In this document: positions 2,932 to 64,000 of the stretch, in pieces | Numbering within the stretch: position 1 is the first letter of the stretch | Layout of the letters: each line of letters opens with the position of its first letter | Source: Bryoerythrophyllum caledonicum | Taxonomy: Eukaryota; Streptophyta; Bryopsida; Pottiales; Pottiaceae | NCBI GenBank assembly: GCA_963971425.1 | Contig: OZ020519.1 | Span: 11,486,028-11,550,027 of the forward strand | DNA: 64,000 bases | Direction: 5' to 3' | Program-made: the position numbers and the translations under genes | The notes under the pieces: generated by a model | Databases searched by the model: none | Told to the model about the DNA's origin: nothing | Seen by the model: only the letters and a program-made list of their open reading frames with translations

Positions 2932-2945
2932 GACTAGAGCTTCAA

Positions 2946-29454: not shown

Positions 29455-29845
29455 TAGTAATCCCCATAGGTTTTTTATTTTTATCCTTATTCTGAACTTA
29501 ATTTTTAAATTTTAAATTTAAACAAAGATAAATTGCTTCCTCTGTAAGCTTCATTCCCTCAACTTCCCATGCAATGTTTCGTGGATACTTATACATAGTT
29601 AATAAGGCTCCCATTTCATTTTCTCCCAACCATTCACTGGCTATACCTATTAAAAGGTCTATCTAATTTTCGGCTATTTTCAAATATTCCCCATCATAAG
29701 GACCTATACGGTGATACGCACAAATTGTAGTGATTAATCTCCTAATTATTTTCCCACCATTAACTCGGGTACATAAAGGATCACTCTCTCGGTTCATTTT
29801 GTCATTGGGGTACTTGTATAGTATTTCAAGGAATTATAAAGAATT
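29455..29845. other. Spacer between leader ORFs and gag
   Basis: AT-rich; no ORF or motif recognized. Confidence 0.4.
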
Positions 29846-35689: not shown

Positions 35690-36005
35690 TTTGCGCGCGC
35701 TCGGCCTCAAAGCGCACGCGCCTAGCCCGTGTTCGCATGCGCCCAGTCACTGTGCTTCGCGCGCCCGACCCCTATTCACGTGCGTTCGGCCGCTGTTCGA
35801 GCGCGCCTGGCCTCAAAGCGCACGCGCGCGGCCACTGTTTGCAAGCGTTCGGCCCCCATTTGCACAAGCTTGGCCCCCGTTCGCGCGCGCCTGGCCCCAA
35901 AGCGCACGCGCCCGGCCCCCATTCGCACGCGCCCGACCACGATGTTTGTACACGCCCGATCATGATTGGTACGCGCCCGTTACATCTCGTACGCGCGCGG
36001 CCTTT
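35690..36005 (+). repeat. CpG-rich 21-bp minisatellite, array C
   Basis: About 15 units of 21 bp, consensus near CCTGGCCCCNNTTCGCACGCG, ending 20 bp before the TATA-like box of unit 2. The long ORFs across it are repeat artefacts. Confidence 0.85.
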
Positions 36006-38102: not shown

Positions 38103-41100
38103 CTATACAAGATTGTTCAACACGTACTCATTCAGGTTTTCAGCGTCATCCAAATCTAAAGTGTAAATCTGACTGTCAGGGTTGAACGACAATGTCACAT
38201 TGGTAATTATAGAATCAAGGCCTATCCACTTGGAATCGGTTAGATCGTACCTGAATTTGTACTGTCCTGGTGCACAAGTGAAATAGTGCAACATTACTTG
38301 AATGTTACAAAGTGAGTTAGGATTCTTACCTGACGGCATGTCACGGTTTGCCAAATCGACTGGATGCTTTAGACACCCCCATGAGGTACCACCTAGCCGC
38401 CTTCGCATTTTTTGTATGCGACCCATCCACCAAGTTCCCTCGTCCACACCTTGTAATACCGAAGCAGCAGTACCGGCCTTTAAAGCTCGTGATCTGCCCC
38501 TCCTTTTGGCTGCTGTAACTGTCGACGGCCTCGAAATAGTAGACCGTTGTACAAAAAAAACACCAACATCCGACCCGATTCCCACAAAACAAGTATTCGA
38601 ACATTGCGCAGCACTAAGGTATGCATCACTATTGTTAAAGTACAATGAGTTCTTGACACGAGTTAAGCAGTCTTTTGATAAGAACGGATTTCCATTTAGT
38701 TGCCCAACTTGAATATTTTATGTCCATCAAATTCAACAAATGGTTCTACCTTAACTGGTTCCAAGGTACCCGCAATCTGGTTCTCATGTGTGCTTAACAT
38801 GTCTGAAATGGCATCACGAGCCTCACTCTCCACAACAGACAGATGTGGCACTCCATCGTCTAGTAAATCACTCTCACCTTGGTCAAGATCATACTCACCT
38901 CCCTCAGCACGCATATGAAATTCGAGGTCTTTGGCATGCAAATCCTCGCGCAAAACCTCCATGTCCCCGTCCTCGCCACGCACTGGTTTGGCTGAGGATG
39001 CGAATGCAAAGCACTGCTTGTCTGCTAGCTCCGCAGACCAAGGTTTTTCAAACCACTGTTTGGTCTTTGCTGTAGCTTGAGCACTTGGTGCCATGTTTAA
39101 ACTATTCAGCAGCCTCTGTGCCGATTTGAGACCCACCTTCAAGGCATCTACCACAAGATCGTTGGTTGCTACACTGCTGTAGTCTCCAAGATCATGTTCG
39201 GTTTCTGAACCTTCTAACCCATGCAGATTAGCCCAGATGTTATTCATTTTATTATGTGCCCTACCAAACTTGATGCCATTCCCACCGTACTCTATCTGGG
39301 ACAAGTGATTGACAGTGTTCGCACATGACAACAATTCGTGAAAATCATATGCTCTTTCCATGCCAACCATCCCCTCTACTTTACTGAATTTTTTTTGCAT
39401 GCATCGCTGCCGGTTAAATGGAACGAACAGTCAGGTGAAGGTACTTATCTCGGAAATGACACACAAATAGAACAATGAAATGACATGACAATTGTATGTC
39501 TATGAAGCATTGCTGACTAATGAAATTCACTTTTGCATTGACAGGTTCAGTGTTTCCCATTACCGCGTGATTACCATGCTTCATCCACAATTTCCAAATC
39601 CTGAAAAAGAAAGAAACCTTTGCAGCTTTCACAATTCGTTCACGTAAGTCATGCCTAAGAGAGAGGAATATGTCTATGTAATCTGCACATATCTCCAAAT
39701 ACACCTCAGTACCAAGAGTGCGTTCACGATGCACATCTTTTGACAATCATAGGGACCGCAAGCAATCTCGTACCTTCTGGGAACAAAGGCGCTGCGCGCT
39801 AGCCCAATTTTGGCGGTCTTTTCTGTCAAAATCCTCTTGAAGTAGCCCATGCTCATCAACCGTGAAGCGATTGAAAACCTGACAAATATGCTGGTGGAGG
39901 GCTAGATCCCCTCCTAACCTCAAAGTCCGCACATTGCTGTCAATAGGGTTAAGTAGCTTCGTACCATTGTGGATGTAGTCCTGGTCGTGTAGTCCTGTAG
40001 CTTCACCTTGCACATTCAAAGCAGAACTGAATATCCAACCCTCCCAGTCAATGGTTAGTCTTGGACCCTCTGACCCCCTGAAATCTTGTAACATCAGTTG
40101 CCTCCTCCGAGAGTCACCATCGCTGGCATGGCCAATAATCGGTCCCACAGCAGTATAGCAATGGCTCATCCATAACGCATCAATTCTTTCCCACTGTTGT
40201 CTAACCCAATCGGAATTGAAACATCCACACATACAACATGCAACAAGCACCAATCAAGGCAGTTTCTCATGCAAAGGGTTCACCATAATTACTCTAGCGA
40301 ACCCCCCTACCTTATCAGACTTGAAAGACTCAACCATTTTGTTGTATCCTACATCTCCAACACCTACAGCGGGTTTATAATGCGGGATGCAGATGTGATT
40401 CTCCCTTGGGCCACAAAACCCAACCATAGTATCCAATTGGGCCTCCCATGAAACACGACCTCTGACTTTGGTCTTGTCCTCGGCCAATATAACCGGGACA
40501 GGGCCAGTAATACCAAGGGCAGCCTTGGCATCAGCATAAATCAATGCTATAGACTTAAAGATTTCAGCATGCTCACCCACTATGAACTGCACCCCTTTCC
40601 TACATTCTCGGCGAATTGTGTCGTAACTTGGCCCTGCAAAGTTTAACGCAAACAGATCACAGAGACGACGTTCCCCATAGATGCACATAGCTCGAGCAAA
40701 GCATTTAGTATTCTCGCTATAACGATTCCCATGGTCATTTCTATTCAAATTTGCTGCCACGTCTTTCATGAAGTCCCACAGTCCAGGTTTGCCCCCGAAT
40801 GCACCTGTTCTGTGGGCACAAATAATATCATTACAAAATTTCATAAGATTTCCGTCAGCTGTGGCATTTCTTGCACTCTCACGCAAAGTAGGCCTCTTAA
40901 CCTTTAGTTGTACAATCCTCACTTTAGCATGCCAGTAATGTAATTTCTCTAGCCGGTACTTTCTATTGAGTTTCCTTGCAAATTTGGACATCTTGTATAT
41001 AGACAAATAGCCTAAGTGGATCCCTCCAGCAGTGCTTCTATGGCCCCTCTTGACCACTGCCTGGTCCTCTCTCCGAATCCTCATTCTGAAATCGTCAAGA

Positions 41101-42530
41101 TGAGGAATCTGAGCACAAAGAGGGCATGTCAGATTTGGGAACGGCTTCGAGTTCAAAGACAAACGTGCGCATTCCCTATGCCGAAACGTTCCACTCACCT
41201 GAACCACACCATCCTGCCATTCGACTGTGGCTGAAAGATGTGGCTCAGGGTACCACTGACTCCCAGAATGAGGATCATTTAGCAACGAAGATACTAAATA
41301 TGAGTTCCCCCCGTATTCAAGGGCTGGACCTCTAAAGCCATAACACATCATACGAGCACCAATTTCCTTATCCATGGATTGGGACATACCTTCCTGTTGA
41401 TTTGATGCACCCCGCAACAACCATGTATGGAGATCACTTTGATTGGAGTGACAGCTAGTGGTGCTGGAGGAAGTTGGTTGACCTGAACGCCCGGATCTGG
41501 CTGGCTCCCTGTTCAGCTTCTCAGCGTCTTGCACAGCCTTCTTGTACTTTGGCGCCCCGACATGGTTCGTCAGGTTCACTTTGAGGTTCAGCTTCATTGG
41601 GCACAACACGAGCAGATCTCGACAGTATTGGCACTTCACCCTAAACCAGTAGCACCTCGTATCTTCTGCTTCCAGATTTCCAAGGATTGTGAAATGTTTG
41701 TGTCCGCTTGGAAGAGTGGCATTCACTGATCGGACAATGTCAACACCTTCGGCAATCAACCTCTTATGATCCTCCGGCGTCACTACGGCAGACCTCCCAT
41801 TCTTTGCAGCACTCAGCGGATGATTATCGAAGTCCACCCCTTTGGCCGCACAGAAATTCCTCACATGCCCAGCATTCACAATGTGAGATCTACGGAAGTT
41901 GTTGAACAGATTGTCGATATGTGCTTTTGTGTGATCCTTGCTACCACCACCACAATCTTTCTTGCATTCTCCGCACCATAACTTGACCACTCCATTGCCA
42001 TTGAGGTCGAAGGTCTTCAGCCACCAGTCATGGTCAGACATGGCAACCTTCTTCAACTCTGCTCGCAGTTTCTTCGCTCGCTCGAGGTATCGGTCCATAA
42101 CCTCTGTCGGCAAGAGTACTGACTTGAGAGGGATCTCGTCAACTTCGCTACAATCTCCGCCACCGCTCACCCTAGACGAACCAGCAGCCAAAAGTGTGGG
42201 ATCTTCGGTTGGAAATTCCATAGCGGTGACAACCTCAACAGCAAGAACCACATTCTCGGCGGTTTTCGTTGACGAACGATCTTCCAGCCGGCGTCTCTTG
42301 CGACACTCTATCTCTCCTTCGCAGACCCGAATGACATGGACCTCCGCAGAGATCGACGTAAGACGCTCCAATTTCTTCCTCACGCGTCGGCGGACTTCAG
42401 GGTCCCAAAACTCAAATGGCCACTCCAGAATGTCGTTGATTTCTAGCTTAATCCGCAGGCTCCCCAACGTCAAAGCCTCTTCAATGTCGACTTTGCTGAA
42501 GTACTGTGGGTCTGCTTCGTCTTCCTCCAA
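38103..42530 (-). pseudogene. Putative transposase of the 6.8-kb element (about 1400 aa, decayed)
   Basis: First frame 42530-40254 (MEEDEADPQYFSKVDIEE), in-frame TGA, continues to 39747, another TGA, then to a 61-bp intron (39444-39384, GTACCT...CAG, phase compatible), next frame to about 38700, a frameshift near 38715, and a last segment to 38103. Notable segments: a cysteine site LWCGECKKDCGG (about 41990) and a second one CQYCRDLLVLC; VILAEDKTKVRGRV (about 40480) followed by DTMVGFCG, recalling the first catalytic region of P/THAP9-like RNase H folds; IIGHASDGDSRRRQLM (about 40130); DYIHNGTKLLNP; and WWMGRIQKMRRR plus KHPVDLANR near the C-terminus. Both TGAs fit CGA originals. I do not know the family name; transposase is inferred from size and from being the only long gene between the TIRs. 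Confidence 0.65.
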
Positions 42531-43231
42531 CGTCCATAGTGTGATTCTATTCGGAGAGCTCCCAGCAATACCTAAAATCTGAAATCACAACGACAAAACG
42601 AGGCTCAAAAAATGCAATGGTTCGCAAAACCCTAATGGACTCCAAAATGCTTGCATCGCTGTTCTCACTGCAATCTGCAATCTCCTGCCCTAGAATCGCA
42701 GGTACAAGAGCTTCAAAGCTTTGACAATGTAGAGCTAAACCAAAAATCGCAGCAACGACGGACATCAAGCAAGCATGATCCACAAATTTTGCACGGCAAA
42801 AAACCCTCAAACCCTAACATGCGCCTGAGAGAAGGACCTCACGCATACGAAGCAGAACTTTTCATCCACAGATATTCATCTCTTGCCGTTACATGGGAGG
42901 CCCGATCACCATTCTACAAATAATGCGTTCAGGATTAGAAAAAGCTGATTCACTCTGCAAATAACCACTTAGGATCCTTCATTTGTTTGCATACAGCCAT
43001 ACAGCCCATAATCCTACTGCTACTTTAGTTGAGCTTTTTTATTTTCAGCAATGCTATATTATATCTAAAAAATCAACAAATTTCAGTATTTTTCTATAGC
43101 CTTCATTCATTATACCTTTTTTTCCCTATTCTATAGAAGCTATTTTATTTCAAATTCTTTTATAAATTTTAGGTGCAAGGTAATTAAAATAACCCTTCAT
43201 TTGATTGCACCTAAACACTAAAGAAAATGGG
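42531..43231. other. Transposon 5' flank/promoter region
   Basis: No gene. The first 270 bases are GC-balanced with AAACCCTA words (telo-box-like) at about 42629, 42786 and 42811. The rest is AT-rich to the right TIR. Confidence 0.5.
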
Positions 43232-45940: not shown

Positions 45941-47214
45941 ATGTAGCATTTTTGGGCTTAGATTCCGGACTGGAAGCGATTAACTATGGGGCTCCAAGTG
46001 CACCCGGCTGTTGATGGAGTCGACGGCCAGTTTTGTAGTTAGAATAGAAATTCCGGAGTCGGAAACTTTTTTGAGATTATAGGATTTGAGATCCGATTTG
46101 GAACTTTTCCGGATTCCTCGGATCTTTTAGATAAGATCTAGCGGATTTCCAGTAGATATGGTAGGAAGGCTAAGTTTAGAAGGAACTTAGTTAGTACTTA
46201 TTAGAGGGATTTTGGGGAAAATCTACTCATCTTGTTCTTCTCACTCTCAATATACTTCGTACCTTCTTGCTAGACTTGCTTCTTTGTGATTTTGGTGTGG
46301 AGTGTAGACATTGTGTGAAACAGATCCATTCTTATAAGTATGATTGCGTGAGTATTCTTCCGGAGGTAGAGTGATAACTTTGTTCGCTAGAGGGAAACCG
46401 GTCAGATCCGTGTCAGGAGATCGCCTGGGAGAGTTGGAGGTATTGCAGAGGTGTGTCTGGTAGTCTCCAGGGTCCGGAAGTAGCCAGGAGGGGAAGAGAT
46501 GAACTGTAGAGGTGTTCCTGGTAATCTCTAGGTCACAGAAGTACCCGTGTTACTCTGGATTTTGATCAAGGCCGGAATTTTCCCCCAAGATAGGAGAAAG
46601 CCTGATACGTAGGTCTAGACGGAATACCCCTGGCGGGTGGTAACATCAGTTCCGGAGAATTACAATTGAACTTACCAGAATGTCGTTGTAGTCCGGGCTT
46701 GTCTCTGTGTAACCGTGTCCGGAAGGCCATCCAGATGTCGTGAGAGTCTAAGTCTAGCAGCAGCAATCAAATCACTGGTTAGCAAAGTAGGGAGAGTGAT
46801 GTCCGGTCACTATAAGTTCCGGGCACTGGGTGTCTAACCACTTAAAGTCACAAGGCAGTGGGAAATCCAGCCACTTACACAAAACATAATCAGTGGACTT
46901 CGGCCACTCGCTTAAAAACTCTGGAAGACTCTCTGAGGACGAAAAGAGACAAAGCAAACTACCCTCCGGACTTCCGGAAACTTTTTCCAGAAGCCGTTGC
47001 ACAAAATCCGGACTCCGAAAGGATTCGGATCCATAATACATAAGTAAAGAGAATAGCTAACCCTTGAACGATTGGTGTGGAAGTTTAGTTATTGGAAATA
47101 TTTGGAAAAGAACATTAGGTCTTTGTGGGAACGAAATCGGAGCGGTTACTTTGGAAGCATTTAGTGACGATTAGGTGCATTCCGGAGGAATACTGTCTCT
47201 ACAAACTGCAACTT
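45941..47214. other. 3' non-coding part of the 3.8-kb insertion
   Basis: Rich in CCGGA words. A phrase of about 60 bp (GTAGAGGTGTTCCTGGTAATC type) occurs twice, around 46448 and 46505. No gene seen. Confidence 0.5.
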
Positions 47215-48816: not shown

Positions 48817-49040
48817 GCGCCCGACCCTGCTCGAACGTGCCCGACCAGCCCCCCCGTGTACGCACGCAGCCCCATCTCGTACGCGCGGAGCCCCATCGCG
48901 ATCGCGTGCAGCCCCCTTGCGTATGCGCACAACCCTCTCACGTTCGCACGCAGCCTTCTCGCGTACGCGCGCAGCCCTCTTGCGTTCGCACGCAGCCCTC
49001 TCGCGTTCGCGCACAGCCCCCTCGCGTACGCGCGCCTCTT
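48817..49040 (+). repeat. CpG-rich 21-bp minisatellite, array D
   Basis: About 10-11 units of 21 bp, consensus CGCAGCCCTCTCGCGTACGCG, directly upstream of a TATA box. Reading frames through it are artefacts. Confidence 0.85.
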
Positions 49041-49074
49041 GGTTGTATGCGCCTGCCATAGGTCAGTGATTTTC

Positions 49075-50212: not shown

Positions 50213-50216
50213 AATG
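50213..50216. repeat. Candidate target duplication AATG, left
   Basis: AATG precedes the left TIR and follows the right TIR (63563-63566). Four bases only, so coincidence is possible. Confidence 0.5.
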
Positions 50217-50248
50217 AACACGTAATTAAGCAATTATGCACTTGGCCA
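50217..50248 (+). repeat. Left TIR of the 13.3-kb element
   Basis: Overlaps a 16-bp perfect palindrome GCACTTGGCCAAGTGC at 50238-50253. Confidence 0.75.
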
Positions 50249-50813
50249 AGTGCACTGGTTGCTGGTAGAAAGCCGCAAGTTATTTGCTCATAACTTTTTT
50301 TTAAATCAAAATTTGGCAAAAGTTTCGTATGTTTTTTGTCAATTTTTTTTGGTGTTTGTCGTGTCATACCTTGGCATCTTCATGTTCATATCAGTAATAT
50401 ATTTTTTACATTTTCTACCTTTTTTTAGAAAATATATGATTTCTAATCTAGTTTACAAATCCTGCTACAAAATTATAATCATGTGCCCAAAGAGATTATG
50501 AATTTGTTATGAGTTATTATAGGATTTTAGAGTAGTGCACTACAAATACAATGTATAAGAGATACAAAAATATATATGCAATTTCCTAAGACAGTGTAAA
50601 GTACCTCACTGTATTTTATAATGCAAAAACATACATAATCAAGCAATTCCACACTATTGCTGAGGAATTCTAAAATCAAACATATCATATGGACCACCCA
50701 ATATATAATATATACCACCCACCGAACGATAGACACATCTCAAACTGCAGTATACTAACGTATTTGCCACCTAAACTACATGCATGCTCTACTATAGTAT
50801 ATAGCTCCAGGGC
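50249..50813. other. Subterminal non-coding region, left
   Basis: AT-rich 3' flank of the ParB-like gene; ORFs here carry no motif. Confidence 0.5.
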
Positions 50814-53800
50814 TCAGAGCTCATCTTCTGGCGGAACGACTCCCTCCACGTGTCCAATGGCGCTACCTACCATAGCGGACAGTTCATGATCCTGCACTGG
50901 ACGATCTCCCACATCTTCGATGCCAATGGACGCACACTCAACATATCGGTAATTGCCAGGAATACCCTCTTGCGTATCCCTTACCCTATCATCATTGTAG
51001 AAAAAACCATCCTCTTGATTGAAGGACATCTCTCGCTCTAACGAGAAGGCCCCCTGAAATGCAATGATGTCCTCGGATACGCTAGATCTTGGAACGGAAG
51101 GCAAACCTGGTCCGGTATCACTCTGAGTACCTCCGAACGTCTCTTGTGTCTCCGATACAGGCTCTGATTGAGAAGGCATCGAATGCTGTGGAATCTTCCT
51201 CTGCACCGAAAAAAATTCCAATGAATCCAATTCTTCTTCCTCCATCTCCAGCCTAAGACCATCAAATGTACGCCCCCCTCCTGTCCCTGCCGCCAAACCA
51301 ACATCCACTACACGGATATCTTGCATCCTCTCTGTAGGTGTTGCAGACGTCTCCCCTGAAGTATTTCCCACCGCCTGCTGCGTTGATGGAATCCTCTCTC
51401 TTGGAGGAGACTGGTACACTCCATCTTCATCGACGTCTGAACCACTGCGAGATGAGAAATCGTCAGTGGTACCTGAATGTGGCAATCTCTCATGTAAACC
51501 ACCTCCATCCTCATTGTCGTATTCATTCCTCACTCCACCAACCGCCTCTTCAGTCTCAGGTACGATGTTGCAACCAGTACTTGTTCCACCAGTCCTGACC
51601 AACAGTTGTCCTTGGAAATTGTCGGACAACTCATTGTACAGAAATGAAACTCTGTCTGTACAATCGTCAATGATGAAAACCTCAGATCCCTGGAAATCTC
51701 CTTCAAGGATCGTGGGAATGGCCGTAGATATGTTACACGCCACTAAACCCCAACCACGGGGCAAGTAAGAGCCCACTAGTCTTGCCAGCTCTGATGGAGA
51801 TCTCTCGAGTGAATCAACTTCAGAGGGTTGGCGTGCCTCACTCCAGTGATCCAAGAATACAAGTGGAAGTGGAACGTCTCCAGAAACATAATTCGGGCCA
51901 GGAGATGTTTCCACAGGGTGCTGCATACAAATCACAACATCGCCAATCGGTTGTACTACTTGCTGCAGACGCCCATTCTCTGTAAAGTCGAGAGCATAGG
52001 GAATAACCGAGTTCGGATCAAACGCCCAACATCCACGGCGCATAGTACATCCCTCTGGAAGCTTCACCTTCGTGAAAAACTCTTCGTTGGCATAGACGGC
52101 CGCTGGTAACAAGAAGATGACGTTCCATCGTTCAATATTTGCCATCCATAATGACAGCTGTGCAAAAGCCGCGGATAACTGGGCGTCTCCCCAATGACCA
52201 TCTCCATGCCTCCCACCGCCACGTCGACAATCAATCACCCACAAACATGGTTTCCCCAACTCTATGTAGTCGGTGCGGAATAATCCTCTTCTACACCGAA
52301 TTGGAAGAAGATTCTCTGTGTCGCTCTGGCCTAGCCTCTTGACTTCCATCTGCCATTCCCAATTAGCAGTAGCATGTCCTCCCACATCCACGGACAATCC
52401 AATGTATCCACGCCCCCCTGCTGCAATGTCACCATAATGAAACCTGATGGAAGGAGGGATGAGGTAGCCTATGTCTTCCAGCTTAGACACCTTCCCCCGC
52501 ACAGGAGCAGTCCAAGTTTTTTTCGTGGTAGCATTCAAAAGCTTCCCAAAGGTATCAAGTTGTGCGTTACTCCTCGGAAAATACTTCCCTACTCGGATAC
52601 GAAAGAACTCCTCCATGGAATCAGGTGTACTTTCTTTGTTCTCCACCATCAACCAACGGATGGAATTGATCACAGCTTCTCGTCTCTGATATCGGTCACA
52701 AACACCGGCAATCGTACGAGGATGTGGATTCTTGTCTTTTACACCGTCAAAGTAGTATGCTTGACGAGGTCTTACTCCATCCTCTGTCACCGGCTTTGCT
52801 GTAGCAGACTTTGCCAACCGAAGATAATATGGAATCGGAACCCTATCTAACGGCCTCAACCAATTCTGGGTCATCTCCTTTCTTGTTGGTCGTATGTCCA
52901 CATTTGGATCTAGCTCTTTCTTCCTCGCCATGTCCTTCCACTTGTCCTCCTCCTCCTTGCTGTAAAAGAGAATGCCGTCTTCGTAGTCCTTGCAAACTTG
53001 AATGATAGCTTCGAAGCAGTCATTGCTCGGATTCCATGCATGATTGGTCAGATCCTCCATGTTTTTGGCTAACCTCTTCACCGTGACAACTCCATCCCCC
53101 TTGGGCAACTTATGTACTACACTTGCCGCACTCACCAAAGCAACAGCCCTACGTGCATCGTCCGCACGTAGTGTGCTGTCAGGCCTCCTGTATAGATCCC
53201 AAATCTGACGGAGCTTCCTCAAATCCTCCTCCATGGTAGAATAGGACTGTCTTTGGAACTCCGCCACATTGATCCGCGCAGACTTCTCAATGTAAAAGCG
53301 ACGATCATCATACACTACAAAAGACGCCTCCCGCTGCTCGAACGTGTCCAGATACTCATTTAAAGGCATAGTACCATCTCTCCACTACTGCTGTGCAAAC
53401 TTACAAGCTGCTACTATGTGTTGCCCATCCACGGGTTCCCAAATGATATGATCTTGAAGCCAAGAATACTGGGATCCCATAGCACCTTGTGCAGAAGCAC
53501 TCCCGTGTGCAATGAACATGCGTTCAAACTCTCGTGCGGTTCCTACCAACGGAAATGGCAGCTCCTCCTTCTCAACGACACCATCATCGGTGGTAGTATG
53601 CACGATGTATCTGATCGGTCGAAGTATCAATCTACTCACCCGAGTCGCGGATTCTGGGTCTCGTAAGCGGTTGAATACTTCTATGACCCTCTTCTGTGAT
53701 AAAACTCGGTGGTTGGTTTCGGGATTCTCCACAGAGACAATGCGGTCTATGTGTGCCTTAAACACAAAATTCCCCCACACTGATCCTTTCGCAATCTCCT

Positions 53801-54778
53801 CTATTGTAGGCACTGGTGCTTTTAAATTCATTGGACTTGGAAGATCCTGTGGTATCTCCGCATTGTCTTCAAAATCCTCTGGTATACTGTCTGGAAGGTT
53901 GTGAAATTCTTCTTCCTCCGGCGGCATGGCTGACACATCAGCTAAATCTCCCGGTGTAGATGTAGGAGCCCTACGATGACCATCAGACGTCCTGAGCCCC
54001 GACCTAGGAATCCTGCCACCCGATCTTGCACTTCTCCCAATCAACCTCCTCCCACTTGGATCCAAACTTGATGGGCCTTCTCTTGAACCAGAAGCTACAT
54101 CCTGTCAACACGCCGTGGCATCTTCGTAGGACGTCTACTCGTTAATGGAGGATTCGGTAATGTCTGTACCTCGGAAGTTGTAGTGGGATGTTGGCCTCCA
54201 CTTCCTCTCCCCCCCTCCAGTGGTCGCCAATCCAGTTGCAACGGCTTAGCAAGAATTCGATAAACTTCTGTTTCTTCTGGTTCCATTGGTGGGGCTTGAG
54301 TTGTCGCACGTGATGGGTCCCTCTCCCGAAATGCTTCATATCTAATATGTTCCTCCATAATCTTCTTAGCCTTCAGCACCATCTCCGGTGATAACGCTAA
54401 ACAAGCTAAGACGTTGTTGTATCTAGCAGTACGTACCGCAAGAGAGATGTTCAACCAAAATGTCTGCAATGATTTGAGGAATTTCACCTGACCTGGATTT
54501 TTAAGAAGATTCAAAGGGACAGGTGCCAAAAGCAACTTCTTCGAAAGAAAAGTCTTCACCTCCGATTGACCTGGACCCACTACGCATGTAACGTATACCA
54601 TATCATCACGTCGAAGAGTGAGTGCTTGGATTTTGCCAAAAGTCTTTCCCAACGCCGATGTACGCTTCCCCAGCTCAAAGGGATAATCCGTCACCCATAA
54701 GAAGGCGCTCGACTCATCCACTTCTGCGATCCACCAGCCGTGGCTCTCCCAGATTCTGTCAATATTTGGTGGTGCCAT
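50814..54778 (-). CDS. ParB/Srx-like protein with large C-terminal domain (about 1300 aa)
   Basis: Exon 1 54778-54170 (203 codons, MAPPNIDRIWESHGWW), 68-bp intron 54169-54102 (GAG/GTACAG ... TTGACAG/GAT, phase 0), exon 2 54101-50814. The N-terminal domain (WWIAEVDESSAFLWVTDYP) is unrecognized. Around residues 290-440: SQKRVIEVFNRLRD, ELPFPLVGTAREFERMF and IWEPVDGQHIVAACKFAQQ, where the last piece resembles the DGxHR element of ParB/sulfiredoxin-fold proteins. A TAG at 53382 follows and the same frame resumes (WRDGTMPLNEYLDTFEQR). A middle domain has CLWVIDCRRGGGRHGDGHWGD, a helix, then WNVIFLLPAAVY, which could be a degenerate methyltransferase-type Rossmann fold (weak). The last 300 residues are acidic and disordered. 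Possible DNA-binding accessory protein. Confidence 0.6.
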
Positions 54779-55615
54779 AACGCAACACTCAAAAAACCTG
54801 AATATCATTACAAAACGATAGTCACTATTAATATGGAATAAGAATTTTTGAACCACCACTCATTGCACAATATTTTTCAACATGCAACACCCCTTGTATA
54901 CCTCTAAAAACTTTTGCACTACACAAGATCTAAATCCAATACCATCGTGTTAAGCATGTTGTTAGTTCTTTGGTGAAATAGCATATTAATCCAAGGCAAT
55001 TATTTTCACACATTGTCACACATTTTCGGGGAGAGTACCAGAAAACTTCTACCTTTCCACATAAAATTTGAGAACTTCGTACGATTCACTTTTGATTTTG
55101 CCTATAGCATTATGCGATGTAAAACTTCTTATTGACCATTTGGATTCTCATTTAAAACAATGTCAATTTCACAAAAAAAATATAACGTGAATTGAGAATT
55201 TTGGAACCTCCACTCATTGCACATTTAAAAAAAATATGCTACACCCCTTGTCTACCTTCAAACATTATAATCTTTCAATCCGTGCGGTGAAACTTTATGA
55301 AATTTTGTGAGCATATTACTTAATAAGTCATCATTCAGATCCTACGGTTAAAACTAAAAAAAACATTAATTGTAGAGGCTTTCTAATTTCACAAAAACAA
55401 GCAATTTTAACAATATTTGGGTTAGATATTCACTACATTATTTATGGACCAAGGTATTTGGGGTATCAATATCTAGGGTATGACGACCAGGATATGAGCT
55501 CCTTGGTACCACAAGCGGTTATCAACCGGTGTATCAAATTAGGGTTTGGATTAGGGTTTGGATTTCCGGGTATCAATAAGGACATCAATCCTTTGCTCAA
55601 GTGGGTAGCCCAAGG
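54779..55615. other. Central spacer, left part, with a degenerate copy of the repeats at 57.4-59.6 kb
   Basis: 54840-55360 contains phrases shared in order with 57700-58230 and 58960-59470 (CACACATTGTCACACATTTTC, CCACTCATTGCACA, TATAATCTTTCAATCCGTGCGG, GATCCTACGGT). It is therefore an older, decayed relative in the same orientation. No gene. It includes the presumed promoter of the ParB-like gene. Confidence 0.55.
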
Positions 55616-56342
55616 AGGGGTGTGCGCGCGCACACCCCTGGTAGAAGTTGTGATGAGGCTGTGAGTGAGAGGGTAGGGTTAGGAGGAGAGAGACAATGTG
55701 TGGGAGGTGTGAGGAGATGTGTGGGAGATGTGTGGGAGAGATGGGTTTAAGTGGGCGGAGAAGGTGTGAGGGAGGGTAGTGAAGTCGTGGGAGGTGTGAA
55801 GGAAGTTGTGGGAGGTGTGAGTGAAGTTGTGGGCGGCAAGGGTTTAGGAGAGAGAAGGAGAGAGTGGGTGAGGGAAATTGTGTGTGGGTGAGTGGGNNNN
55901 NNNNNNNNNNNNNNNNNNNNNNNNNNNNNNNNNNNNNNNNNNNNNNNNNNNNNNNNNNNNNNNNNNNNNNNNNNNNNNNNNNNNNNNNNNNNNNNNNNNN
56001 NNNNNNNNNNNNNNNNNNNNNNNNNNNNNNNNNNNNNNNNNNNNNNNNNNNNNNNNNNNNNNNNNNNNNNNNNNNNNNNNNNNNNNNNNNNNNNNNGCTG
56101 CGAGCAGGGCTCGCGCATCGCTGCGCCTGCACCTGTGCGCGTAGGATTTAGGGTGTGTGAGGGTAGGATAGGAGGCCGCGGCAATGAAAAGGGAAGGAGG
56201 TGTCGCACCTGCAAAGCCGCGCAACAAGGAGGTTGACTGCCACACTTGATCACGGAGGAAGCTATTGTTTTGATTTTCGCCTCCATGTGTTTGGATTAGC
56301 TTGGTGGAGGAGTACCAGCAGTAGGGGGTGTGTGCGCGCACA
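55616..56342. repeat. GC/GT-rich segment bounded by inverted alternating-CG repeats, containing the sequence gap
   Basis: The left end is a 24-bp perfect palindrome (AGGGGTGTGCGC and its complement, 55616-55639). The right end (about 56318-56342) reads GGGGGTGTGTGCGCGCACA, near-complementary to the left. The inside is strongly G-rich on the plus strand (GTGGGAGGTGTGAGG phrases, 55680-55896). It may be a small inserted element; no target duplication seen. Confidence 0.45.
55897..56096. other. Assembly gap (200 N)
   Basis: Exactly 200 unknown bases between G-rich and CpG-rich sequence. The round length suggests a placeholder or a size estimate. Confidence 0.99.
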
Positions 56343-56404
56343 GCTCTAGCTCAAGGTTACTTTACGAGGCGTCACGCGATTTCCACGTCACGCGAATACG
56401 TTGA

Positions 56405-56570
56405 CTAGGGTTTGGATTTGTGGTTGTGGCGGCTAGGGTTTGATGGCGGCGGCTAGGTTTTGGCGGCGATGGCTAGGGTTTGGTGGTGGTGGCTAGGGTT
56501 TGGTGATGGCGGCTAGGGTTTTGGAACTACGGTTTGGGTTCTTGTGTGTAGAGGCTAGGGTTTCAAGTAG
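56405..56570. repeat. Array of CTAGGGTTT (telo-box-like) units
   Basis: Six or seven copies of a GGCGGCTAGGGTTTGGTG-type unit, about 21 bp apart in the best part. AAACCCTA on the other strand is the plant telo box known from promoters of growth-related genes. It could mark the 5' end of the transposase or ParB-like transcript. Confidence 0.65.
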
Positions 56571-57389
56571 TGCGCTGATGTGCCATATTGAGGATTTTGT
56601 GCAATACTACGAGCTGCTCTTTTGACTCACTTTATGAGGTTTTGGTGTCATATTTTCAGTATAACAATGCTTGCACTCTCTAGTTGTTGACTGCTATCAT
56701 GTTTTCTTTTTGAAATTGCAATTTTTGTACATTCTCCAGTTGGTGTTCTCATTTGTGTATTTAAACATTGGTACTCACCTACCACTAACCTAATTCTGTC
56801 TGAACTTCAATCATCATGAACACAACCCTAGAGTTCCTCAGATTCAGAATTAAAACGAAGTTAGAAACTTACCAAGATCGCTAAAATCTCCTCGATGTGC
56901 AAATTTCCTCCAATCTACACAGTATACAAATTTGACAGAAATTAGTGAATGAAGTAAAAATGCACATAGCCTTGAGGTTTTGATTATAAGAGTGCCCACC
57001 TTAGAAACTGCGAAGAGAAATGACCTCTAGGTTTGCATAGAAACCTTTTATCCATGTTGGAACCTTGTGCCTCAAGCTTACTAATAAAAATTTGACTTTA
57101 AGAACTTTGGACCTTTTGCTTTGTTTCTCCATATGTTAATTTTTTCAATATATTATATTAAAATTTCGGGCTATATGTAATACGAAGATACATATAGGAT
57201 TTTTTATCACATAGTTTACCATATAAACTTTATGCATGTGTTGCAGGTAAAGGGGGAAGGGTTGAGAAACATGTCCAACAACAACGACGGAATAGTGATA
57301 TAATGTTGAACGCCATCAAGCATCAGTGCGTGTACCGCTAACACCTACAACGTATCTTGAGGTAAACATTTGTTTTTATACAAGTTTAA
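56571..57389. other. Central spacer, no gene recognized
   Basis: AT-rich. A possible splice acceptor TTGCAG lies near 57246; nothing further can be supported. Confidence 0.4.
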
Positions 57390-58330
57390 CCCCTAAGGTA
57401 CCAAGTGTCCAAAAAGGGCTTTTTGAAAGTTCGGTCAGGTTCCTATTGTGTCAATTTCCAACATTCTTCTTTGAAATTTTTACAATAAAAAGACATTACC
57501 AAGACCTTAGTAGGAAAACAATTTTGACCTAAATTGGACATTTGATGAAAAAGTTATAGGGTTTTGAATTTTAATGGGGAGGGCGGGCACCTCGGGCACC
57601 TCCAAAAACTTTTGATAGGACACTCTATTGAAAGTGAGATTTTCATTACTTGCAAGTAATATTATTTCCCTTCATATTGTCAAAAAAAAGTTCTTGTCTT
57701 TAGTGAAAAATAGCATACCAACCCAAGTCAAACATTTTCACACATTGTCACTCATTGTCGGGCAAGGTACCAAAAAACTTCTTGTTTTCCAAATAAAACC
57801 TAGATATTTTCATATTTTTCACTTTTTATTTCTTCCACATCAATATGTAATGTAAACCTTCATATTAACCATTCGGATTGTCAATCAAAAACATATTAAG
57901 TTAAAATTAGTGAAACTGTGAATTAACAAATTTCAAGCCTCCACTCCTTGCACACTTGTTTTGAATATGCTACACCCGGTCTCTACCTCTAAAAAATGGT
58001 GTGTAAGGAGCTAACATCATGCTTAACAAGATGGTAATAGATTTAGACCTTTTGTAGTGAATTTTTTTGACATCAACTGAAGTCAAGGTCTGTTGATCCA
58101 CTAAACGCAGGGAAGAAAATGAACCATTTGGTTGACTTCAAACACTATAATTTTTAAACCGTGGGGACAAAGTTTTTGAAATTTTGTACATATATTACTT
58201 AATAAGCCTTTATTGAGATCCTACGGTCAGAACTCAAAATCAAAGTTTTGATTTCCTTCTTTATTTGTTGCACTAGAATCCATTTAGTTTGAAGTGGTTT
58301 TGGTGTAAAACTGTCACGATACCTTAGGGG
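57390..58330. mobile_element. TTAA-flanked 941-bp non-autonomous element, copy 1 (piggyBac-like ends)
   Basis: TTAA at 57386-57389 and 58331-58334 flanks ends CCCCTAAGGTA and TACCTTAGGGG (11-bp perfect TIR). TTAA target sites with C-rich ends are the hallmark of piggyBac. No coding capacity. Copy 2 lies 1239 bp to the right. Confidence 0.65.
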
Positions 58331-58334
58331 TTAA

Positions 58335-58624
58335 GATTGATTCTTGATTGATCTTTTGTACTATGTTGTTTGTATAATAACCTTTATGTGGACATACAAA
58401 TCCATTATTTAATTAGCGATTGTAACAAGTTCCAATGGTGTCAATCATAGCAAGTAGACAACATGGTTCATTTTCTTCCCTAGGTTCAGTGAATTCCCTT
58501 CGTTTCAGTTCACTTGGATTCAAAAGATTGCATCACACATGATCTAGGTTCATTATCATCATGTGAAGAATGATTAGTTCCATTATTCACCAATGTTTAG
58601 GAATGCAAAAGAGGTGTAGCATAT
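58335..58624. other. Spacer between the two TTAA elements
   Basis: 290 bp, AT-rich, no feature recognized. Confidence 0.5.
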
Positions 58625-58628
58625 TTAA

Positions 58629-59570
58629 CCCCTAATGGATCAAGTGTCAAAAATTGGCTTGTTGAATGTTTGGTCAGGTTTCTATGGTGTCAATGTCCAA
58701 CATTCCTCTTTGTAAATTTTACTTTAGAAAGGCATTACCAAAACCTTAGTGGGAAAACAATTTTTACCTAAATTGGACATTTGATCAAAAAATTATAGGG
58801 TTATAAATTTAAAATGGACCGAGCAAACAAATTGGGCACCTCCAAAAACTTTTGCTAGGACACTCAGTTGATTGTGAGATTTTCTGTACTCAAAAGTAAA
58901 ATTATTTCCCTTGATGTTGTCAAAATAAGTTCTTGTCTTTATTGAAAAATAGCATACCAACCCAAATCAAACATTTTCACACATTGTCAGTCAGTGATGG
59001 GCAAGGTACCAAAAAAACTTCTTGTTTTCCAAATAAAACCTAGATATCTTTTTATTTTTTCACTTTTTTTTTCCACAACAATATGTGGTGTAAACCTTCT
59101 TATTGGCCATTTCAATTACCAATCTAAAACATATTAAGTTCACAAAAAATTACAGTGTGAATTAACAAATTCCGAACTTCGACTCTTTGCACAGTTGTTT
59201 TGAATATGCTACACCTTTTTTCTCCCTCTAAAAATTGGTGTACAAGGAACTAACATCATGCTTAACAAGATGGTTAAGGATTTAGACCTTCTATAAAAAA
59301 AAAATTGACACGAAGTGAAGTCAAAGTGTGCTGATCCACTACACGTAGGGAAGTAAATGAACCATAAGCTTCACTTCAAACACTATAATCTTTCAATCCG
59401 TGCGGTCAAAGTTAATGAATGTTTTTTTAATTATTAATTAATAAGTCGTAATTGAGAACCTACGGTCAAAACTAGAAATAAAAGTTTTTGTTTCCTTTTG
59501 TGTTCGTTGCACTGGAATCCAACAATTTAGAAGTGTTTTTGGTGTAACACTATCATTGTACCTTCAGGGG
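58629..59570. mobile_element. TTAA-flanked 942-bp non-autonomous element, copy 2
   Basis: Same orientation and almost the same length as copy 1. Left flank TTAA (58625-58628), right flank TAAA (59571-59574, one change from TTAA). Ends CCCCTAATGGA and GTACCTTCAGGGG, slightly diverged. The interiors align throughout with copy 1. Confidence 0.62.
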
Positions 59571-59791
59571 TAAAGGCTCCGTGCAAGGAGTTCATGTTCT
59601 AAAAATTCTTAATTTTCTCATTTCAAAGCAGTTTTATTAAAAGGTCCAATATCATCATCATATATTGAACAGTAAATATGTGTTTAGAAACATACCTTTT
59701 ATCACATGAATGGTGCTTTGAAGGTTAACAATTAGTACATGTATTTTGACTAATGTGCAGCCATAATGTTCCTATTTTTTCAATAGTGATA

Positions 59792-62700
59792 ATGGAGAGC
59801 CGCACGATTCAGACTCCTTTGATACGGCCACACATCGAAAGGGACAATATGCCTTCTAATAGCTTTGTGGGGGCCCGATTAGTACGAGCAGCACGTGCAA
59901 GGCAAATTCAACAGAGATCTGTTGGGATCATGACTTCTGAATTGGAAAAGGCAGTAGAATTGCTTTCAGAAAGAGGAGATGTGGTGGGCTTAGCAACTAG
60001 GGAGCATGCATTCAAAAGTGGCATGGAATTGAATGGATCAAAGTTGTTCCCATTCGAGGTGGCGGTGCGTATCATTAGGGTAGATGATGCATTGCATTGG
60101 ACCGGAGAGATTGTAGGAGAACGCCTTGGCATATGTGTGGGCTTGATCATTCGTTGGCATCGATCTTTGCTACGTGTAGTGGCTGTAGAACCTGATATCA
60201 CAGGTGGCCATGGTGACATTGGATCACAGATAGCACCTGCAGAAGTGATGGCCCCAAAATTTGATTTTCCTGAGTTCATCAACACACTAGGATCCACCCA
60301 GAGGTCTCGACGCAGTAGTCATGCTTCAAACGCCATAGATGAAAATTCGCCGTTTTCCCAATCTACTCCCTCAAATATCCAAGATTTGCCCCATGTAGAT
60401 GGATTTGTGTATGTTAGACCAGCACGTCGTCCATATTCTATTCAAAATAGGAGAAGGAGATATTCAAGGGAGCCATCATTGACAGAAGCTGCACCATCTA
60501 AGGTATCGCTTAGAAGCGTGCAAATTGCAATGGCACAAGGAGGATGCAAACACAATTGTTTGAGGGACGTTCCAGCAAGGTATCTATTGGACATGCGATA
60601 TAATGCATGGGGTAGTGAGTTTTCAGTTCGAAGTACGTGGATGAGACAGATGCTGGTTTCTTTTTACACAAGGACGGAAAGAACTCGTCGAGACAAGTTT
60701 GTAACAAAGTTAGATGGGAAAGAAGTTTGCAATGCTTGCTACGCTCTTGGGGTTGGATATTCACAGAGGCGCTTTAAGCAATTGAAGAAGGACTGTCTAA
60801 TATATGGAAGAGTGACATCGATTCATGGCAATACGCTTTCAGATCCGATAAGAGAGAGTACTAGAATGTCTGCAGCAGAGGCTTGCTTTAAATCATTTGT
60901 CGATGAAGTTGGTTGTCCTCAACCTCATCGTTGTATTCGCCGTAAGAGTGACAACGAAGTGGTGCCTCTCATTCTCCTTCCTATGAATACAGCCAAATTT
61001 GATGTATTCAATTACGTGAACGAGGAGGTCAAGAGAATTTGTAATGGAGAAATCATTTCTATGAGTTCGTTCCGGAGGATGTGGCGCATCAAGTATCCCC
61101 ACGTTCAGGTACCTCCATTCTCGAGATTCTCAAAGTGTTATCATTGTTGGGAGTATAAATGTGCCATGGAGGGAACCACCAATGCGGATGCAAGGATAAA
61201 GATAAAGGAGTTGTTTATGTTGCATCTACGCAACCAGATGGAAGAACGTAGACATTATTGGATATTCAAGAGGTCGTGTTATATTAGCCCTGAGTTGTAC
61301 ATGTGCATCATAGTGGATGGCATGGACCAGAACACGACCATGGTACCGAGGATGCGTCAGACTGTGAAGAACATTGAACACCGGTTTGTGAAGACCCATT
61401 TGTGTGGTGCTCTTGTACATGGGATTGGTTTATATTGCGACGTGTGGTTCGGGGCTCACCACAAACACGATAGCAATCAAGTCGTGAGTACATTGTTGTA
61501 CGTGATTGGAGATGTGCTGCGGAGGAGGGGCTTTTTGCCACCAACACTGCGAATTCAGGCCGACAACTGCACGCGTGAGAACAAACACATTTATATGTTT
61601 GCTCTATGTGCTACATTGGTGGGATTGGGATTTTTTCAGGAGGTGGAACTATCTTTTCTTATAGTGGGCCATACACACGAAGATATTGATCAACGTTTCA
61701 GTTGTATATCAAATACGTTGAAGAGGTCGGACGTGGACTCGTTGAAGGAAATGATTGGTCTTATAGAACGAGGAACATCTCCTACGGAGGCATTTGTTAG
61801 CGCCCGGCTGCTAGAGAATGTATGGGATTGGAAATTGTTCATAACTCCTCACTTACTGACAGGTCAGGATTCATTGGTGGGCATAACATTTCCGCACCAC
61901 ATGCCATTCTATATGGACAATCGAGAAGGGACTCGTGAGGTTCGAGTACAACACAAGCATTATTGCAAGGATCCATGGGGACCGGAGGCAGGGACAAAAA
62001 CTTTGAGGTCGTTGCCAAATAGGGATGAACGACCATCGTTTGCGGAAGTATTTGCAGCGGACGAACGGGAGTTGAAGGCGTTGGATGACTTCATTGCATA
62101 TAAACAAAGGTGCATTCAAAGGTTGCAGCACGAGGACAAGAATCGTGAGGCAAAAGTAGAGGCTGAAAGATTGAAGCTCTATTTAGCTGAATTTCCACAT
62201 AAAGATCGTAGCAATGAGCATCGTTCCTCACAATTTTGGCCTTCAGAGTTCTCCAACACCGGACCTGTAGAGACTGCATCTTTGGATGTAATGGATGATA
62301 CAAGTGAAGAAAATCGCGAGATAGATGTCGTAGAGCAGGTAGTGGCCATGCTTCCAAATGCCGAGGCTCGAGGATACTTTGGTCTTCGTAGAGGAAGACC
62401 CTCTAATCAAGCACTGCGTAGGGCACAACGAACAGAGTGCAACTATGTTGAGGAAAGAGCCGAAGAAGGAGCATTGTATGAAGGTAATCACGACCCATTT
62501 CCACCATTTAATCCACAATCTGATATCTGTTGTGGACAATTTGTAGCCTTGAGTGTTGATCGGGCAGAAATAGAAGGCGGTGTACCATTCTATGTGGAGA
62601 AAGTGATTGAGGTCGGAAAAAACCGATGGAGACTTAAGATAAAGGTTTGTTGGTATTGGCCCAGCATGCAAAGGGGGGTTGTTGATGGATATGGGTCTTC

Positions 62701-62983
62701 TGCACAGCGGTATGCAAATTGCATGGACTCAATCTGGGAGCCATCTGGGGAGAGCCATAGTTGGGTAGAGAAAGATGCATGTATTTTTTCATGGGTAGTC
62801 TCTTCAGAAAGAACCATGTCAGGGGCCAGCGGGTGGAGAAAGCGCAATGTATTTGGAATGCATGTTGAAAGTAGGATTCGCATTCTTCAATCGGCAAAGG
62901 CTCACATACTGCAATATATTGCAATGCAAACCGAAGCTATCGATGACGACCGTTTGCAAGCAGCCCTAAGTTCTATGGAGTAG
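59792..62983 (+). CDS. Putative DDE transposase, GHTHEDID type (1063 aa)
   Basis: An open frame without interruption, start chosen at ATG 59792 (MESRTIQTPLIRP); an upstream ATG at 59753 spans a likely acceptor (GTGCAG). N-terminal region with basic linker (RRPYSIQNRRRRYSR). Then GGCKHNCLRDVPARYLLD and KEVCNACYALGVGYSQRRF, the cysteine/recognition segments typical of this family. Catalytic candidates are Asp in IIVDGMDQN (residue about 509), Asp in IQADNCTRENKH (about 590), and Glu/Asp in VGHTHEDIDQRF (about 625-633). From memory this matches the DUF7869-type proteins found in algal, moss and animal transposons. The C-terminal 150 residues (GQFVALSVDR, VCWYWPSM) could be a small beta-barrel. 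The intact frame contrasts with the other mobile genes here. Confidence 0.75.
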   Translation: MESRTIQTPLIRPHIERDNMPSNSFVGARLVRAARARQIQQRSVGIMTSELEKAVELLSERGDVVGLATREHAFKSGMELNGSKLFPFEVAVRIIRVDDALHWTGEIVGERLGICVGLIIRWHRSLLRVVAVEPDITGGHGDIGSQIAPAEVMAPKFDFPEFINTLGSTQRSRRSSHASNAIDENSPFSQSTPSNIQDLPHVDGFVYVRPARRPYSIQNRRRRYSREPSLTEAAPSKVSLRSVQIAMAQGGCKHNCLRDVPARYLLDMRYNAWGSEFSVRSTWMRQMLVSFYTRTERTRRDKFVTKLDGKEVCNACYALGVGYSQRRFKQLKKDCLIYGRVTSIHGNTLSDPIRESTRMSAAEACFKSFVDEVGCPQPHRCIRRKSDNEVVPLILLPMNTAKFDVFNYVNEEVKRICNGEIISMSSFRRMWRIKYPHVQVPPFSRFSKCYHCWEYKCAMEGTTNADARIKIKELFMLHLRNQMEERRHYWIFKRSCYISPELYMCIIVDGMDQNTTMVPRMRQTVKNIEHRFVKTHLCGALVHGIGLYCDVWFGAHHKHDSNQVVSTLLYVIGDVLRRRGFLPPTLRIQADNCTRENKHIYMFALCATLVGLGFFQEVELSFLIVGHTHEDIDQRFSCISNTLKRSDVDSLKEMIGLIERGTSPTEAFVSARLLENVWDWKLFITPHLLTGQDSLVGITFPHHMPFYMDNREGTREVRVQHKHYCKDPWGPEAGTKTLRSLPNRDERPSFAEVFAADERELKALDDFIAYKQRCIQRLQHEDKNREAKVEAERLKLYLAEFPHKDRSNEHRSSQFWPSEFSNTGPVETASLDVMDDTSEENREIDVVEQVVAMLPNAEARGYFGLRRGRPSNQALRRAQRTECNYVEERAEEGALYEGNHDPFPPFNPQSDICCGQFVALSVDRAEIEGGVPFYVEKVIEVGKNRWRLKIKVCWYWPSMQRGVVDGYGSSAQRYANCMDSIWEPSGESHSWVEKDACIFSWVVSSERTMSGASGWRKRNVFGMHVESRIRILQSAKAHILQYIAMQTEAIDDDRLQAALSSME

Positions 62984-63530
62984 ATAGTGTGCCTTTATGA
63001 GAGTATATTAGTTGTGTATGGTAATTGATATACTATAATAGTGTATGTGTAAGAGTAGTATATTCTAAGGGTGATGTAAGACGTTATGTCATTAATCCTT
63101 TAGAGTAAAGCTGTGTTTACTATTGGTGCTAAGTCCAATTGTTGAAGCATCTATATTTAGTTTTCACCATTGTATGCATTATATTCTATGTAGAATATCT
63201 TTTAATCAACTGCCAACCCTTGCATAAAATATGTTCTTTTGTAATTACGTCTGTTTATATACTACAATCCTTCAAATCTATCTTTGAAATATTGTGAAAC
63301 TATATTAAATACACATTTATCTAGTATTAACGAGGGGCCACCACAAATTAGTTGAAAATGCCAAAAAATTGCTTCCCATATGAACAACCATGATTGTACG
63401 TAATATTGTTGTAGAAGCTCAATTTTTTTTCCTTTGGAAAACATTTTTTTTCTTTGATTTTTTTTTTTTTTTTTCAATTTTGCGACTTTTGTTCGCAATG
63501 GCCGCCGTTGTACCCAAGTGCACTTTTAAA
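62984..63530. other. Subterminal non-coding region, right
   Basis: Transposase 3' flank, AT-rich with a long T tract (63420-63478). No gene. Confidence 0.5.
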
Positions 63531-63562
63531 TGGCCAAGTGCATAAATGCTTAATTGCGTGTT
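63531..63562 (-). repeat. Right TIR of the 13.3-kb element
   Basis: The reverse complement starts AACACGCAATTAAGCATTTA; differs from the left TIR at two positions. Confidence 0.75.
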
Positions 63563-63787
63563 AATGGTGAAACGTTTTGGAACAAGAGCTTTCGACAATT
63601 TTGTAACTGCCATTGAATATTGAGCGAAATTTTGTATATTTAATAAAACCTTGTATATTGAGTGGCATCATGTATATTTAGTGGAATTTTATCAGATTTT
63701 TTACATATCAAAATGTTAAGTGTTGCAATGTTTCAATATATTGACGAATTAGTGCAAACCTTGAAGTATTTTGGAAGAATCTAAAAC
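63563..63787. other. Resumed 3' flank of unit 3
   Basis: Begins with AATG. It includes CAATTTTGTAA, also seen in the 3' flank of unit 2 (near 47737), which supports continuity of unit 3 across the 13.3-kb insertion. Confidence 0.45.
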
Positions 63788-64000
63788 GTGCGCCCGACCC
63801 TTAGAGTGCGCGCCGGACTGCACAATGCGCGCGTCCGGCCCGAAATCGTGCGCGCCCGGCCCTAGAGCATGCGTGCACGGCCCTAGAGCATACGCGCACG
63901 ATCCTAGAGCGTATACACATGCCCCCACAGCGTGCGGGCCCGGCCACATAGAGTATGCGCACGGCCCCACATTGTGCGCGCCCGACCACATAGAGTACGC
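63788..64000 (+). repeat. CpG-rich 21-bp minisatellite, array E (start of unit 4)
   Basis: About 10 units of 21 bp, consensus CCCGGCCCTAGAGCATACGCG, reaching the window edge. By analogy a TATA box and another unit gene should lie just beyond. Confidence 0.85.

What the first reader, a model, noticed from the sequence alone, without database searches (positions are those of the whole stretch)
50217..63562. A 13.3-kb DNA transposon pairing an intact DDE-type transposase with a ParB-like partner
Seen: 32-bp ends matching at 30 positions in inverted orientation, AATG on both sides, two divergent genes that each stop about 0.6 kb from an end, and the whole unit lying in the 3' flank of a repeated gene. 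Known: GHTHEDID-type proteins are transposase-like in several eukaryotes; ParB-fold proteins bind or cut DNA. Inference: a large plant transposon whose movement or silencing escape uses a second DNA-binding protein. The transposase frame is uninterrupted, so the family may be young or active.
Basis: partly seen in the sequence, partly recalled or inferred. Interest (0 to 1): 0.87.

Follow-up and report, generated by a model that had tools for sequence, protein, structure and literature searches.

The report
Transposon carrying a degenerate DNA-methylase-like protein
A 13-kb jumping gene carries, beside its transposase, a second protein built from a bacterial-type DNA-binding (ParB) domain and a DNA-methylase fold whose catalytic signatures look lost, a new twist on an accessory protein recently reported from an algal transposon.

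The parts
50213..50216 (.). AATG, left copy of the 4-bp target-site duplication
   Evidence: read directly; mate at 63563-63566
50217..50248 (+). left terminal inverted repeat, 32 bp
   Evidence: 30/32 to the right end
50237..50254 (.). 18-bp perfect palindrome TGCACTTGGCCAAGTGCA at the inner edge of the left end; candidate transposase-binding site (inference)
   Evidence: exact 12-mer TGCACTTGGCCA occurs in the window only here (both strands) and in the right end
50814..54778 (-). partner gene: N-terminal part with a basic linker, ParB-like domain, helical middle, methyltransferase-like domain, acidic tail; broken here by a frameshift and a stop
   Evidence: ATG checked
54095..54104 (-). place of the frameshift in the partner gene (frames 54095-54859 and 53385-54104 overlap here)
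   Evidence: the two frames match P0012 residues 3-225 and 239-463 in turn
53385..53387 (-). in-frame TAG inside the ParB-like region of the partner
53250..53768 (-). ParB-type domain (model residues 113-285)
51600..52349 (-). beta-class DNA methyltransferase-like domain (model residues 586-835) with DCRR at 625-628 and NISTA at 791-795
54967..55257 (+). third, partial copy of the intergenic repeat
   Evidence: 73.9% to 57697-57988
55897..56096 (.). assembly gap of 200 N inside the element
57385..59575 (+). two tandem copies of a ~1.24-kb noncoding unit between the divergent genes
   Evidence: 81.9% over 957 columns; spacing 1238-1240
59792..62983 (+). transposase gene, 1063 aa, DUF7869 (PF25273), open
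   Evidence: Pfam E 7.2e-48; 11 relatives; start
63514..63523 (-). second GTGCACTTGG just inside the right end (this 10-mer also occurs at 50246-50255 and once outside, at 45994-46003)
63531..63562 (-). right terminal inverted repeat, 32 bp
63563..63566 (.). AATG, right copy of the target-site duplication

Best explanation
This is a large cut-and-paste type DNA transposon, most likely of the Sola1 kind (4-bp duplication). Its DUF7869 protein is the transposase: it would bind the palindromic/subterminal GTGCACTTGGCCA-like sites and cut at AACACG ends (inferred). The partner is a ParB-like/pseudo-methyltransferase accessory protein. It most likely binds element DNA, plausibly the noncoding repeats between the two genes, and helps the element by shielding or marking its own DNA or assisting the transposase, rather than by methylating DNA, since both catalytic signatures are missing in every relative that covers them. 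Shown here: ends, duplication, two genes, a conserved partner family, predicted folds, altered motifs. Inferred: all binding and mechanism. This copy probably cannot supply the partner function itself.
For: Ends and AATG. DUF7869 gene with 11 relatives; its 516-720 core averages 85% pairwise identity over 9 rows, against 76% for 301-515 and 48-58% for three other regions; D523, D605, E644, D645, D647 invariant in 12 of 12 rows. Partner: 14 distinct relatives over; ParB, helical and methyltransferase-like parts average 54-56% pairwise identity over 10 rows, the C-terminal end 44%, the linker and acidic tail 29-31%, which suggests selection on the folded parts (inference; no dN/dS was possible). 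All 50 listed Foldseek rows (of 393 matches at E<=10, 16 at E<=0.001) are DNA N6A/N4C or METTL/MTA-type methyltransferases; of the 50 VIA rows, 40 are such methyltransferases and 10 are ParB, Noc, PadC or KorB. Motif state; ten control enzymes keep [DS][PL]PY in 10 of 10 and GxG in 9 of 10. Published parallel of architecture and orientation: Sola1-1_Ec32.
Against: One copy only; no second insertion, no empty site, no taxon. Only one of five AlphaFold models of the partner was of use (mean pLDDT 54.4 against 43.6-46.1), and parts of the methyltransferase-like domain are below 50. Profile comparison of that domain with ten beta-class enzymes was not significant (probability 0.2%, E 0.28), so motif placement rests on predicted fold and inspection. 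Pfam gave only two chance-level matches at E<=1 for the partner, and no PDB sequence matched at E<=10. The transposase fold is unconfirmed. Sola1 membership by sequence was not testable. The two protein families were never seen together on another contig.
Confidence: 0.66

Rival explanations
1. The partner is an active but unusual DNA methyltransferase that marks its own element, with DCRR and NISTA doing the work of DPPY and FxGxG, as proposed in print for the Ectocarpus protein's activity.
For: The fold match is to beta-class DNA methyltransferases; the first acidic residue of motif IV (D625) is invariant; the published protein of like architecture is predicted to make N4mC or N6mA.
Against: PPY and FxGxG are absent in all covering rows (13 and 12 rows; P0019 keeps one glycine), while ten control enzymes keep [DS][PL]PY in 10 and GxG in 9.
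Confidence: 0.15
2. The partner is a second transposition factor (end-binding or synapsis protein) needed together with the DUF7869 protein, with no role in silencing.
For: Two-gene DNA transposons are known (autonomous Harbinger elements in Ectocarpus, passage); a ParB-type domain and a basic linker (RPSKRPR-like in several relatives) suit DNA binding.
Against: Does not explain why a methyltransferase fold was kept; the longest repeats that could be its targets lie between the genes, not at the ends.
Confidence: 0.3
3. The two genes are host or unrelated mobile genes that happen to lie between a chance or unrelated inverted repeat.
For: Only one copy was examined; flanks are repeat-rich.
Against: 30/32 ends with matching 4-bp flanks, both genes ending 0.58-0.60 kb from the ends, no comparable pair in five shuffles; gene orientation like Sola1-1_Ec32.
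Confidence: 0.06
4. The partner is passenger cargo with no benefit to the element.
For: It is broken in this copy while the transposase gene is open.
Against: Nine long relatives with conserved domains argue for selection.
Confidence: 0.1

Closest known systems
Sola1-1_Ec32 giant transposon of Ectocarpus (PMC12477816; passages seen)
   Same: Large DNA transposon; [quoted passage not shown] ParB-like domain plus N4C/N6A-type methyltransferase domain
   Different: 21.5 kb and brown algal; its methyltransferase is predicted in print to produce N4mC or N6mA. Here 13.3 kb, and the catalytic motifs look replaced. No sequence of it was available to compare
VANDAL elements with VANC anti-silencing proteins, Arabidopsis (PMC10398659; abstract and section list seen)
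   Same: Transposon-encoded second protein that binds noncoding, fast-diverging tandem repeats of its own element (their finding); here too the noncoding part holds diverged repeats
   Different: No relation between the proteins was shown or tested; no binding data here
Fungal DNA transposons encoding TET/JBP dioxygenases (PMC12730594; passages seen)
   Same: DNA transposon that carries a DNA-modification type protein besides the transposase
   Different: Dioxygenase, not a methyltransferase fold
Beta-class DNA methyltransferases such as M.BceJIV, M1.HpyAVI, CcrM
   Same: Predicted fold of partner residues 586-835
   Different: DPPY and FxGxG replaced
Viral proteins with long alignments to the partner model, one named ParB/Sulfiredoxin (row 13)
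   Same: 429 alignment columns suggest that ParB-like and methylase-like parts occur together
   Different: Domain make-up of that protein was not examined; weak score (E 3.6e-3)

Membership tests
DNA transposon with terminal inverted repeats | Matched inverted ends | tested here: met
   30/32
DNA transposon with terminal inverted repeats | Target-site duplication | tested here: met
   AATG both sides, one copy only
DNA transposon with terminal inverted repeats | Multiple copies or empty site | tested here: inconclusive
   no empty-site paralogue in window 1-46900 and no other copy in the window; genome search unanswered 18 times
Sola1 superfamily | 4-bp target-site duplication (recalled; defining paper not held) | tested here: met
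   AATG
Sola1 superfamily | Sequence relation to curated Sola1 transposases | not testable with these tools
   no reference sequence found; Pfam names only DUF7869
KDZ (Kyakuja-Dileera-Zisupton) | 8-bp duplication as stated for one member, Zisupton-1_PGr | tested here: not met
   4 bp here
DDE/D transposase | Three conserved acidic residues | tested here: met
   D523, D605, E644/D645/D647 in 12 of 12 rows; which of the last three would be catalytic is not known
DDE/D transposase | RNase H-like fold | tested here: inconclusive
   model pLDDT 37.9, no match E<=0.001
ParB | ParB-type fold | tested here: met
ParB | GERR-type CTP-binding motif (recalled) | tested here: not met
   DGQH in 13 of 13 rows covering all four positions
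Beta-class DNA methyltransferase | Fold | tested here: met
Beta-class DNA methyltransferase | Motif IV (D/S)PPY | tested here: not met
   DCRR in 13 of 13 covering rows; controls 10 of 10 keep [DS][PL]PY; placement by fold and inspection
Beta-class DNA methyltransferase | Motif I FxGxG | tested here: not met
   0 of 12 covering rows; controls keep GxG in 9 of 10; placement by fold and inspection

The most novel reading that the evidence does not exclude
A eukaryotic transposon family keeps a ParB-type loading/spreading domain fused to a dead DNA-methyltransferase fold that reads, rather than writes, DNA state. The protein would load at the fast-diverging noncoding repeats between the genes and coat its own element, keeping host silencing off or licensing transposition: an anti-silencing system of prokaryotic/viral origin, analogous to VANC but unrelated.
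Probability: 0.2. Interest if true: 0.82.

Novelty: new variant of a known kind. Interest (0 to 1): 0.58.

Why it matters
Transposon-borne ParB/methyltransferase proteins are reported in algae as possible self-marking factors. A family in which the methylase fold is kept while both catalytic signatures are lost would separate DNA binding from methylation, and gives a clean test of what these accessory proteins do. It also attaches a partner to the DUF7869 family, a name found in none of the library's papers.

Tried and rejected
Sequence routes to the partner's identity failed. Pfam: only chance-level matches, for three window frames and four relatives. PHROGs, four relatives: nothing for P0012 and P0019, weak families of unknown function for P0022 (best E 0.0018) and P0021 (E 0.067). 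PDB sequences: none. Phage tblastn with P0012: none. IMG/VR with P0012: none. The predicted fold gave the answer. Transposase relatives were not found in IMG/VR or in the prokaryotic genome collection. The transposase model was too poor to use; its fold search gave nothing at E<=0.001 and is not used as evidence.

An intron reading of the partner's broken frames was considered and rejected: of the 9 relatives, 7 run through both places in one frame (P0017 covers only the place of the stop, P0020 neither); the alignment shows no extra letters at the stop; and the two overlapping window frames match successive parts of P0012. LLPP of the relatives (model residues 665-668; LLPA in the window) was considered as motif IV and rejected: the strand/helix order of the model and the spacing to the motif I region fit D625-C-R-R better (inspection). 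In window 1-46900 no empty-site paralogue was found.

I make no claim that this arrangement is new to print beyond what searches show; these listed only PMC12477816 as a paper describing it, and only passages of it were read. Its references 50 (Iyer 2011) and 51 (Petroll, Bostrychia) were seen as reference entries alone.

Full report
Observation. The ends are as described. The 32-mer at 50217 matches the reverse complement of 63531-63562 at 30 of 32 positions, and the next-best place in the window reaches 20 of 32. A seeded scan found no inverted 32-mer pair at 26/32 or better with arms at least 1 kb apart in five of five dinucleotide shuffles; the real window holds three such pairs besides this one (28, 28 and 26 of 32), two of them inside the element's intergenic repeats and one joining 40.8 kb to 55.3 kb. 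AATG lies directly outside both ends. The genes are divergent and stop 597 and 579 bp from the ends. The element spans 13,346 bp in this assembly, but contains a 200-N gap at 55897-56096, so its true length is uncertain. It has no other copy in the rest of the window.

Ends. The left end continues into a perfect 18-bp palindrome, TGCACTTGGCCAAGTGCA (50237-50254). The right end carries the same 12-mer TGCACTTGGCCA once, plus a GTGCACTTGG just inside. In this window the exact 12-mer occurs only in the palindrome (once on each strand) and in the right end; the 10-mer GTGCACTTGG also occurs once outside the element. They are candidates for transposase-binding sites (inference).

Transposase. The plus-strand frame, 1063 aa from 59792, matches DUF7869 (PF25273, E 7.2e-48). 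The protein search gave 11 relatives, 8 of them over 1000 aa (only the 7988 candidates sharing most words were scored). The DUF7869 region is the best conserved of five regions, and D523, D605, E644, D645 and D647 are invariant in 12 of 12 rows, as are C327/C330 and C463/C466. The AlphaFold model is too poor to show an RNase H fold. That this is a DDE transposase is therefore inferred from its place between matched ends, the acidic residues and family conservation.

Partner. The minus-strand gene starts at 54778 and stops at 50814. Here it is split by a frameshift near 54,100 and an in-frame TAG at 53385-53387. The frame before the shift matches P0012 residues 3-225 at 59% and the frame after it residues 239-463 at 61%. 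One search gave 9 relatives; one search gave 13, of which 5 were new; in all 14 distinct, 9 of them of 1125-1488 aa. Of the 9 aligned, 7 run through both places in one frame. So the gene is a real, conserved family that is broken in this copy (an assembly error cannot be excluded).

Catalytic state. In the fitted order (motif IV first, motif I last) the expected DPPY falls on D625-C-R-R, kept in 13 of 13 covering rows of alignment A4 (15 rows; P0024 and P0025 do not reach). The expected FxGxG falls on NISTA-like letters; none of 12 covering rows has FxGxG, and P0019 keeps one of the two glycines. Ten control enzymes (YhdJ of E. coli K-12 and nine phage enzymes found by similarity to it) keep [DS][PL]PY in 10 of 10 and GxG in 9 of 10. 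Against this reading: a profile comparison between the partner and these ten was not significant (probability 0.2%, E 0.28; its best stretch did set the LERSPSEL...ISTA segment against the enzymes' motif I region), so the placement rests on predicted fold, spacing and inspection.

Noncoding core. About 5 kb lies between the two start codons. It holds two tandem ~1.24-kb units (57385-59575, 81.9% alike over 957 columns) and a third partial copy at 54967-55257 (73.9%), as well as short minisatellites. Diverging tandem repeats in the noncoding part are what VANC proteins bind in VANDAL elements (PMC10398659 abstract). That the partner binds these repeats is a proposal only.

Comparison. [quoted passage not shown] PMC9033089 lists Sola1 in Physcomitrella (table passage). 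The 4-bp duplication and the accessory gene make Sola1 the best guess for the superfamily; the sequence test was not possible. The novelty is the apparently dead methyltransferase, kept across relatives as little as 32% identical in that domain (lowest of 45 pairs).

Limits. No organism, no second copy, no co-occurrence of the two families on another contig, no expression. The genome search was sent 18 times and never answered.

Noticed in passing
21969-29511 (-): Gypsy-type retrotransposon: frame 22704-24302 has reverse transcriptase, RNase H and integrase zinc-binding matches; the neighbouring long frames 25885-29511 (1208 aa) and 21969-22703 were not searched and look gag/protease-like and integrase-like by eye
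   Followed up: partly
38103-42584 (-): Run of minus-strand frames (776, 168, 244, 204 aa); three of the four were searched and had no convincing Pfam match. Could be another, decayed mobile-element protein
   Followed up: partly
48836-49056, 63806-63987, 35882-35940: GC-rich stretches with about 21-bp spacing that recur in the window and lie on both sides of the element
   Followed up: partly
1260-2958 (-): Class 3 lipase-like frames: 1912-2958 has a weak, sub-cutoff Lipase_3 match (E 0.0032); 1260-1916 was not searched
   Followed up: no
55538-56563: Minisatellite stretches rich in TAGGGTTTGG (plant-telomere-like letters, recalled) inside the transposon on both sides of the assembly gap
   Followed up: no
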